The notes below the pieces were generated by a model. That model made no database searches, was not told the DNA's origin, and saw only the letters and a list, made by a program, of their open reading frames with translations. Below, one piece after another: positions 41 to 27,347 of a stretch of DNA of 38,642 nucleotides. Origin of the DNA: an uncultured Eubacteriales bacterium (GTDB taxonomy: Bacteria; Bacillota; Clostridia; Peptostreptococcales; Anaerovoracaceae); NCBI GenBank assembly GCA_900320285.1, contig ONRQ01000011.1, positions 1-38,642 on the forward strand. Reading direction: 5' to 3'. Each line of letters opens with the position of its first letter. The first letter of the stretch is position 1. The position numbers were made by a program, and so were the translations under genes.

Positions 41-691
41 TTCTGAATTACTGTTAAAAGAGTATAACGTGAAATCTGGAAATCAGAAAAGCCTCAACAA
101 AAACCTGACAGTCAGAGTTGAAAAGCGTACCTGATATTTCAGGAAACTACAATATCGCAGCCGAAACAGGTTAATAAGCTGTGCATAGTTGTCATAGTAA
201 ATGGCATCTGTGCGCAGCTTTTGCATTTTGTTTTCAAAAAAGGAGTCTTGGAAAGGGAGTCCTGGAAAAGGAGTTTTGGAAAGAGAGTCCTGGAAGAGGA
301 GTCTTGAAAAGGGAGTCCTGGAAAAGGAGTTTTGGAAAGGGAGTCCTGGAAGAGGAGTCCTGGAAAAATGTCTACATGAGGTACCGAATTTTAACATTTC
401 ATGTAGAAAAAAACAGGCACTCCGGATTATTCATCAATATACACCGCAGAATAAACCGCAGATATTCTGTAAAAATGACATCTCCAGGAACCAATCAGTT
501 GACAATCTACTATTATGCAGCTGGTTTTAGCTGTGTGGCGCCTTTTGTACGTATTTTACGCAAAAGAGACCGCTCTCTTTTCTGCACGAGATGCTATTAT
601 TTGGGCACTCCTGTAGAAGGATTTCAAATTTTCCTTTTTCACCAACAGGACACGAGGTAAAAATGCTAATAATTATTCATTTCAATGAATA
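41..691. other. Non-coding stretch of about 650 bp
   Basis: I see no convincing gene here. Open frames through it run across the 14-bp tandem array in different registers and have no family resemblance or good ribosome binding site. Besides the array it holds three small dyads: CCTGA/TCAGG at 130-143, CTACATGA/TCATGTAG at 372-379 and 399-406 (followed by seven A), and AAAAGAGA/TCTCTTTT with a CCGC loop at 562-581. None has the U-tract of a standard terminator. It is AT-richer and less codon-like than the rest of the window. Confidence 0.5.
244..369. repeat. 14-bp tandem repeat array, nine units
   Basis: Nine head-to-tail copies of a 14-bp unit, consensus AGTCYTGGAARRGG, occupy 244-257, 258-271, 272-285, 286-299, 300-313, 314-327, 328-341, 342-355 and a degenerate last unit 356-369. 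The variants recur every four units (cTTgg, cCTgg, TTTTgg, cCTggAAGagg), so there is a 56-bp higher-order repeat present twice. The strand is purine-rich. Because 14 is not a multiple of 3, any frame through it cycles registers, giving repeated peptides such as GKGVLEKEFWK that need not be real. There are no spacers, so it is not CRISPR. Confidence 0.9.
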
Positions 692-18667: not shown

Positions 18668-18845
18668 GCGCAGGCAGAATACCCCTTGCGTCGACCGGCT
18701 CTCGCCTATCGCGTCTTAACGCAGCGGTACTAAGCTCTGTCTGCGCAGCCGACATTGGCTCCTCGCTTGCTCGTCGCTAAGGCTGCTTGCCAATCGCTAA
18801 GTGCCGGCTAACGCTCAGTCTCCGCGCAGGGTATGCTGCCTGCGC
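18668..18845 (+). repeat. Structured dispersed element, copy A (cysS-thyA gap)
   Basis: Outer arms GCGCAGGCAGAATACCC (18668-18684) and 18829-18845 are complementary at 16 of 17 positions. The enclosed core (about 18697-18812) is nearly the same as in copy B at 27158-27347. Shared blocks include GGTACTAAGCTCTG (18726-18739), GGCTCCTCGC, TCGCTAAGGCTGC and AATCGCTAAGTGCC. CTAAG occurs three times, two of them as TCGCTAAG repeats 20 bp apart. A small hairpin, GCGT-CTTA-ACGC (18711-18722), sits inside. The arms differ completely from those of copy B. It is non-coding and of unknown class; an RNA element or a palindrome-targeting repeat is possible. Confidence 0.8.
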
Positions 18846-26035: not shown

Positions 26036-26068
26036 TCTGAAAAGACAAACAAAATTAGAATATCCAAC

Positions 26069-26160
26069 CTAAGACAGCGGGTGCGAAAGCTTAATTTCCC
26101 GCCGAGGTACAATTCATAGATTTGAACCCCGCTGTCTTCATGACGCGGGGTATTTGTACC
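26069..26160 (+). ncRNA. Ribosomal protein L10 leader
   Basis: The 171-bp gap before rplJ matches the L10 leader pattern: AAGACAGCGGGTG, then CTTAATTTCCCGCCGAGG, then the closing strand CCCGCTGTCTT. AAGACAGCGGG (26071-26081) pairs with 26128-26138. GGTACAA (26106-26112) pairs with TTGTACC (26154-26160). CCCCGC (26127-26132) can instead pair with GCGGGG (26145-26150), a competing fold suited to L10(L12)-dependent attenuation. Confidence 0.85.
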
Positions 26161-26206
26161 TACATGACAAAACTAGGCGAAGGGATATCGCCGGAAAGGA
26201 GAAAAA

Positions 26207-27157: not shown

Positions 27158-27347
27158 GATGGCCGTTCTCAAATATCCGTCCGAACCGATACGGCTCCCG
27201 CCTCGCCGCGGCTTTACGCAGTGGTACTAAGCTCTGACGTCGCAACCGACACAGGCTCCTCGCCTGCTAGTCGCTAAGGCTGCTCGTCAATCGCTAAGTG
27301 CCAGCTACCGCGGAGTCGGTTCTGCCGGATATTTGCTCGCGGCCATC
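27158..27347 (+). repeat. Structured dispersed element, copy B (rplL-rpoB gap)
   Basis: Arms 27158-27195 and 27310-27347 are complementary at about 29 of 38 positions, including GATGGCCG, CAAATATCCG and GAACCGA blocks. The core (about 27196-27305) matches copy A at 18668-18845: GGTACTAAGCTCTG, GGCTCCTCGC, TCGCTAAGGCTGCT, AATCGCTAAGTGCC. The left arm also has a rival partner: CGGTTCGGA (27151-27159) pairs perfectly with TCCGAACCG (27180-27188). CGGATATTT occurs at 27326-27334 and again at 27353-27361, so the arm has two possible right-hand partners. No gene is present. Confidence 0.8.

What the first reader, a model, noticed from the sequence alone, without database searches (positions are those of the whole stretch)
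18668..18845. Dispersed element family: conserved core inside non-conserved complementary arms
Copy A (18668-18845) and copy B (27158-27347) share a core of about 120 bp, same orientation, with long identical blocks and repeated CTAAG motifs. Each core is closed by its own inverted arms: A has 16/17 paired positions, B about 29/38. The arm sequences are unrelated between copies. Ordinary transposon ends would be conserved. Complementarity kept while sequence changes suggests an RNA helix under selection, or an element that inserts in the middle of palindromes. Both copies sit between housekeeping genes, directly ahead of thyA and in the rplL-rpoB gap. I know no named class that fits.
Basis: partly seen in the sequence, partly recalled or inferred. 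Interest (0 to 1): 0.75.

Follow-up and report, generated by a model that had tools for sequence, protein, structure and literature searches.

The report
Mobile hairpins with private stem sequences
Short DNA hairpins scattered between genes of many gut and rumen Clostridia share a conserved inner structure, but nearly every copy has its own differently spelled yet self-complementary stem; they look like mobile DNA, and how the private stems arise is unexplained.

Summary
Copies A and B belong to a dispersed family without an Rfam match. A covariance model of the core finds it in 44 of 47 genus genomes, 114 of 349 genomes of the taxonomic family and 98 of 397 of a second family. In 112 of 119 copies the arms beat the 95% point of arm-swapped controls, yet arms are mostly unrelated between loci. 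The core covaries strongly (14 of 15 pairs); so does one locus including its arms. Copies sit on either strand relative to neighbouring genes (33 vs 32), some are inverted in place, and at three sites element-free relatives have no palindrome. That argues against a strand-specific RNA and, at those sites, against insertion into ready-made palindromes. Arms and core assort independently: none of 23 within-genome pairs with identical apical loops shares arms. Best reading: non-autonomous mobile DNA hairpins, probably recognised by folded shape, with cores exchanged between copies while each locus keeps its own paired stem. The enzyme and the source of new stems are unknown.

The parts
18668..18684 (+). 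Copy A, left arm GCGCAGGCAGAATACCC
   Evidence: sequence; 16 of 17 positions pair with the right arm; conserved at the same site in G013 and G026, where the A.G mismatch is a C-G pair
18719..18809 (+). Copy A, inner core (model R1 hit; CGGTAC at 18725-18730, UAA/UAA loop, long apical domain)
   Evidence: 71.5 bits, E 1.6e-13
18829..18845 (+). Copy A, right arm GGGTATGCTGCCTGCGC
27158..27188 (+). Copy B, left arm (paired blocks 27158-27164, 27170-27179, 27183-27188)
   Evidence: seven orthologues keep pairing with compensating changes
27216..27306 (+). Copy B, inner core (model R1 hit)
   Evidence: 67.7 bits, E 1.3e-12
27317..27347 (+). Copy B, right arm (paired blocks 27317-27322, 27326-27335, 27341-27347)

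Best explanation
A family of non-autonomous mobile DNA hairpins. Shown: a conserved core of internal loops and covarying helices, closed by arms that are complementary in each copy and mostly unrelated between loci; both orientations; two in-place inversions; presence or absence of the whole hairpin with its arms; independent assortment of arms and apical loops. Inferred: a protein supplied in trans acts on the folded single strand or cruciform and reads the bulges and internal loops rather than an end sequence, so the outer stem must pair but may have any sequence. Inferred: copies exchange cores by recombination or gene conversion, which keeps cores alike within a genome while each locus keeps its stem. 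Stem pairing is kept by selection for the hairpin or by hairpin-templated repair; the data do not separate these. Where a new copy first gets its private stem is not explained.
For: Arms above the 95% point of swapped arms in 112 of 119. Core covariation, 96.1% of cells paired, 14 of 15 pairs changed on both sides, slid controls 20-42%. Covariation at one locus with 7 orthologues. 33 versus 32 orientations. In-place inversion with arms kept: L033 versus L018/L114, and L092 versus L007 (by eye for the second). Element-free sites without palindrome. Whole hairpin lost by an internal deletion in G038. 0 of 23 within-genome pairs with identical apical loops share arms; same locus and left arm but a different apical loop in G464 and G794; at rplL like arms hold cores of 48 to 81 nt. 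In G991 nine copies sit in different flanks with shared arms, in three stretches inside an element with both terminal repeats visible.
Against: No transposase or recombinase was identified; no target duplication or excision product was shown; polarity of the presence/absence differences was not established, and the L312 difference takes in a neighbouring stretch. In G991 arms do travel with the core, and 15 of 52 pairs with similar arms are not at homologous sites (less two inverted orthologues), so arms are not always private. Core exchange is inferred, not observed. Covariation is also what a functional RNA would show.
Confidence: 0.5

Rival explanations
1. A structured RNA (regulator, processing site or small RNA) whose outer helix is selected for pairing only.
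For: Strong covariation in core and arms; 65 of 99 copies lie between co-directional genes; folding z-scores.
Against: No strand preference, 33 versus 32 of 65; in-place inversions; patchy presence at a given site; no Rfam match.
Confidence: 0.17
2. A mobile core that inserts into the middle of palindromes already present (REPs, terminators, remnants of earlier hairpins).
For: Cores alike within a genome with unrelated arms: G028, G464, G824 (7 copies, all 21 arm pairs at 0.56 identity or less). The rplL-rpoB gap of G044 holds a short hairpin without the element. A second hairpin element is itself often nested in loops of this one.
Against: Element-free alleles without a palindrome at three sites; no element-free arm palindrome found in G991.
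Confidence: 0.15
3. An invertible or recombinase-exchanged segment: the arms are inverted recombination sites and must match each other, not a fixed sequence.
For: In-place inversions; arm differences of G991 copies concentrated in a 3-4 bp window of both arms.
Against: No promoter role or recombinase identified; two of the nine G991 copies are mismatched in that window on both or one position (L379, L380), and L376 has one mismatch.
Confidence: 0.1
4. Ordinary MITE or terminator hairpins whose ends have decayed.
For: Intergenic, palindromic, many copies; one host carries it in an element with terminal repeats.
Against: Decay would lose complementarity, but arms stay about 86% paired (median); no T or A tract at arm ends.
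Confidence: 0.08

Closest known systems
REP / REPIN repeats with REP-associated tyrosine transposases (abstracts PMC3733652, PMC3116915)
   Same: Dispersed, mostly extragenic, palindromic, many copies per genome, hairpin predicted in single-stranded DNA or mRNA, no coding capacity.
   Different: REP units are 20-40 bp with a GTAG or CGTC tag at one end; here the conserved part is the middle, the stem differs between copies, tags are not enriched at arm ends, and Y1 transposase genes do not track the copies.
Integron attC sites (abstract PMC2727003)
   Same: A folded single strand with extrahelical bases and little sequence conservation, recognised by structure: the closest model for how this may work.
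   Different: No gene cassettes seen around copies; an attC-like R-box pattern is found near arm ends in 0 of 119 copies (2.1 expected; box pattern recalled); the conserved part is central.
MITEs (miniature inverted-repeat elements)
   Same: Short, non-coding, inverted repeats, presence/absence between relatives; in G991 it lies in an element with terminal repeats CACGGTAAACGCATG.
   Different: The inverted repeats of a MITE family are conserved between copies; here, outside G991, they mostly are not.
Candidate structured RNAs of bacteria (Rfam-type families)
   Same: Covarying helices around conserved internal loops.
   Different: No Rfam match even at E <= 1 on 8 loci, and no strand preference.

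Membership tests
REP / REPIN | GTAG or CGTC tag at the end of the hairpin | tested here: not met
   Within 8 nt of arm ends in 119 copies: GTAG 18 (15.9 expected), CGTC 13 (25.0 expected)
REP / REPIN | Associated Y1 (RAYT) transposase in copy-rich genomes | tested here: not met
   PF01797 in 23 of 47 genus genomes but in none of G003 (18 copies), G030 (12), G023 (11), G011 (10), G044 (6), each at least 93% complete
MITE | Terminal inverted repeats conserved between copies | tested here: not met
   Within-genome pairs sharing arms at 0.75 or more: 1 of 141 in 11 hand-chosen genomes; 0 of 21 in G824. Exception: nine G991 copies share arms
MITE | Target site duplication | not tested
   No sufficiently young insertion with clear polarity was available; none was obvious by eye at the L065 site
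MITE | Presence/absence at orthologous sites | tested here: met
Integron attC site | R-box sequences at the stem ends | tested here: not met
   0 of 119 near arm ends, 2.1 expected
Integron attC site | Recombination of the folded strand by an integrase | not testable with these tools
   needs protein and DNA assays
Structured RNA family | Covariation supporting a conserved secondary structure | tested here: met
   hairpin DNA would give the same signal
Structured RNA family | Consistent strand relative to neighbouring genes | tested here: not met
   33 versus 32 of 65
Structured RNA family | Match to a described family | tested here: not met
   Rfam at gathering threshold, whole window (only the L10 leader) and at E <= 1 on 8 loci
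Intrinsic terminator | T tract after the hairpin | tested here: not met
   T fraction 0.24-0.41 around and beyond the right arm end in 112 copies, no run of high values

The most novel reading that the evidence does not exclude
A transposable element without sequence-defined ends: a DNA hairpin recognised by shape, whose core is passed between stems or whose stem is rewritten at insertion, so that each copy carries a private self-complementary stem.
Probability: 0.3. Interest if true: 0.85.

Novelty: new variant of a known kind. Interest (0 to 1): 0.66.

Why it matters
Mobile repeats are usually found and classified by conserved ends. A family with a conserved inside and freely varying but paired stems would escape such tools, would show that covariation alone does not prove an RNA, and would point to an unknown enzyme that reads DNA shape in a large group of gut bacteria (98 of 397 sampled genomes of one family). 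It also makes a concrete question testable with strain collections: does a stem travel with its core, pre-exist at the target, or get rewritten?

Tried and rejected
Y1/RAYT transposase as the mover: presence does not track copy number. Carriers: an exact core pattern has no hit in viral contigs and copy A has no blastn match at E <= 1e-5 in the plasmid and phage collections; other copies were not tried there. An autonomous version with a gene between the core halves: none in the 1.17 Mb then held; the nine orphan halves were sequence variants (L115, L149, L167, L168, L170), a truncated copy (L188), copies with a nested hairpin (L246, L284) and one chance hit in coding sequence (L099). Terminators: no T tract. 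Inverted copying of the target flank: by eye the arms do not resemble the flanks at cysS-thyA or L312. Insertion into a REP-like palindrome in G991: not found. Arm ends from RNAduplex and from a lenient aligner overshot and were replaced; fixed-offset pairing failed because of small length differences. Result against: the measure 'further standard pair types' was not above shuffles (399 of 500 at least as high), and only 3 of the 23 arm pairs there changed on both sides, with 4 unpaired cells. Result against private arms: 17 of 52 similar-arm pairs had no flank homology (7 of them L065 against the rplL-rpoB copies); 2 of the 17 proved to be inverted orthologues. Papers: 6 searches of the held library listed no description of this family; preprints and most subscription journals are not held; lists of candidate RNAs in supplements (for example those of PMC8040213, listing only) were not read. 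Of PMC3733652, PMC2727003 and PMC3116915 I saw the abstracts and section lists.

Full report
Observation. A's arms (18668-18684 and 18829-18845) pair at 16 of 17 positions; B's pair in three blocks. The window is contig C41 of a 2.02 Mb, 78.6% complete assembly. Records carrying the core pattern are titled Mogibacterium sp., Candidatus Crickella equi, uncultured Clostridiales and similar, many from rumen and gut; Mogibacterium is in Anaerovoracaceae.

More copies. A DNA search and a covariance model of the inner core (R1, from 31 sequences) give 8 model hits in the own genome. An exact pattern hits 30 of 99 relatives, all in the same genus; the pattern read backwards hits none. The model reaches further: 44 of 47 genus genomes at E <= 0.01; 114 of 349 genomes and 27 of 92 genera of the taxonomic family at E <= 0.001; 6 of 391 genomes drawn across the class at E <= 0.0001, two of the window's family and four of family f36; 98 of 397 genomes and 88 of 334 genera of f36 at E <= 0.0001. 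No Rfam match (whole window at gathering threshold, at E <= 1 on 8 loci). Viral contigs, phages and plasmids: no match.

Anatomy. The inner core is CGGUAC, a symmetric UAA/UAA loop, a GC/GC step and a variable apical hairpin. On 51 matches (50 distinct rows) from 41 hand-picked loci of both families, 96.1% of cells are paired and 14 of 15 pairs show changes on both sides; sliding the partners leaves 20-42% paired (this alignment was fitted to the model). Around it lie a 5' bulge containing CUCUCGC and at least two kinds of junction helix, then the arms. In 119 distinct copies arms extend a median of 30 nt beyond the junction and 86% of aligned positions pair; 112 of 119 exceed the 95% point and 98 the 99% point of 1181 swapped-arm controls; there is no T or A tract at the ends.

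Arms between copies. Of 52 pairs of copies with similar arms, 35 have homologous flanks in the same orientation and 17 do not; two of the 17 are inverted orthologues. In one and the same gene gap, arms can be alike or unrelated. At rplL-rpoB seven orthologues keep their arms: 98.6% of 280 cells paired, 8 of 40 pairs changed on both sides (3 of the 23 arm pairs), 0 of 500 shuffles as good on these measures, though 'further pair types' was no better than shuffles. Within 11 hand-chosen genomes 23 of 141 pairs have identical apical loops and none of the 23 shares arms; 1 of the 141 pairs shares arms at 0.75 or more. L158 and L162 of G028 share arms by eye but not apical loops; they were not scored as sharing because a nested hairpin shifts L158's arm. 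In G824, 7 of 11 fetched stretches matched my pattern; cores of equal length are 78-96% identical and all 21 pairs of outer arms are at 0.56 or less. Against this, nine G991 copies share arms; three of the stretches show both ends of a larger element with terminal repeats CACGGTAAACGCATG around the hairpin, and the copies differ notably in a 3-4 bp window of both arms, where some variants changed on both sides and others are mismatched.

Orientation. With a simple open-frame caller, 99 copies have readable neighbours: 65 between co-directional, 17 convergent, 17 divergent genes; of the 65, 33 are on the gene strand and 32 on the other; 7 copies overlap an open frame of at least 90 codons. L033 against L018 and L114 has homologous flanks and arms but an inverted core. 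L092 against L007, the C32 copy of the window's genome, does too: one search scores its arms only 0.71 and 0.50 because of a nested hairpin, but the letters show the same AT-rich arms on both sides of an inverted core.

Element-free sites. At cysS-thyA the genes overlap at TAATG with no spacer in G004, G015, G002, G023, G017, G012 and G037, and are 1-50 nt apart in eight more; G000, G013 and G026 share one insertion; G003, G041, G028 and G030 have insertions with other outer arms; G011 and G021 have an unrelated filler; six genomes have another upstream neighbour. At the L065 site G002 and G033 lack arms and core; G003 and G038 have short fillers of unclear origin; G041 and G025 have other insertions. 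At the L312 site G794, with nearly identical flanks, lacks arms and core together with a neighbouring stretch. At the L113 site G038 keeps the left arm joined to the end of the right arm, a deletion inside the hairpin. Polarity was not established. The rplL-rpoB gap is used again and again: both orientations, several unrelated arms, partial copies in G035 and G022, other hairpins in several genomes, and short gaps in others.

Core turnover. G464 and G794 have the same locus and the same left arm but different apical loops, G464's resembling its own paralogues; their right arms differ at several positions. At rplL similar arms hold cores of 48, 57, 60 and 81 nt. I read this as exchange of cores by recombination; that is an inference.

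Mechanism. Most likely a non-autonomous DNA hairpin recognised by shape and moved by an unidentified enzyme, with cores exchanged between copies and pairing kept in the stem (0.5). Y1 transposases do not track the copies. The origin of new stems is open. The RNA reading is weakened by the lack of strand preference, and palindrome insertion by the element-free sites; neither is excluded everywhere.

Relation to known things. REPs and REPINs (abstracts) are nearest in habit, attC sites (abstract) nearest in principle. Defining features that I tested were not met. I call it a new variant of a known kind: mobile palindromic repeats in which the stem is private to most copies.

Noticed in passing
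L007 (G000:C32), L023, L149, L158, L177, L216, L246, L284; alone in L197: A second hairpin element (AATGCTTTC..ACGGCAACGCCGT..GAAAGCATT with GGAGGC..GCCTCC-like stem) sits inside several copies of this family, at different loops, and once alone in the rplL-rpoB gap.
   Followed up: partly
L186, L187, L189, L197 (rplL-rpoB gap of G041, G040, G025, G043): Another palindromic repeat (core CTCACTTACATAC..GTATGCGCG, arms such as GTCAGACTTTGTTG/GTCTGACAAAG) occupies the same gap.
   Followed up: no
L209, L210 (cysS-thyA gap of G011 and G021): A 183 nt unrelated filler with its own complementary ends; G021 also has second copies of thyA and rplL, which suggests a mixed assembly.
   Followed up: no
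L025/L105: Three copies in tandem about 180 nt apart with similar arms.
   Followed up: no
L393, L394, L395 (G991): The hairpin lies in an element with terminal repeats CACGGTAAACGCATG; half copies of that element lie next to it.
   Followed up: partly
L306-L316 (G464): Outside the private arms of several copies a weak motif recurs (GTGAC on the left, TGT on the right), and further subfamilies with GGACGCTAAGC..GCTAAGCGCC lie beside them.
   Followed up: no
window 210-377: Tandem 14-base repeat, nine overlapping register copies reported.
   Followed up: no
window 26050-26165: Ribosomal protein L10 leader, Rfam RF00557, 65.4 bits.
   Followed up: no
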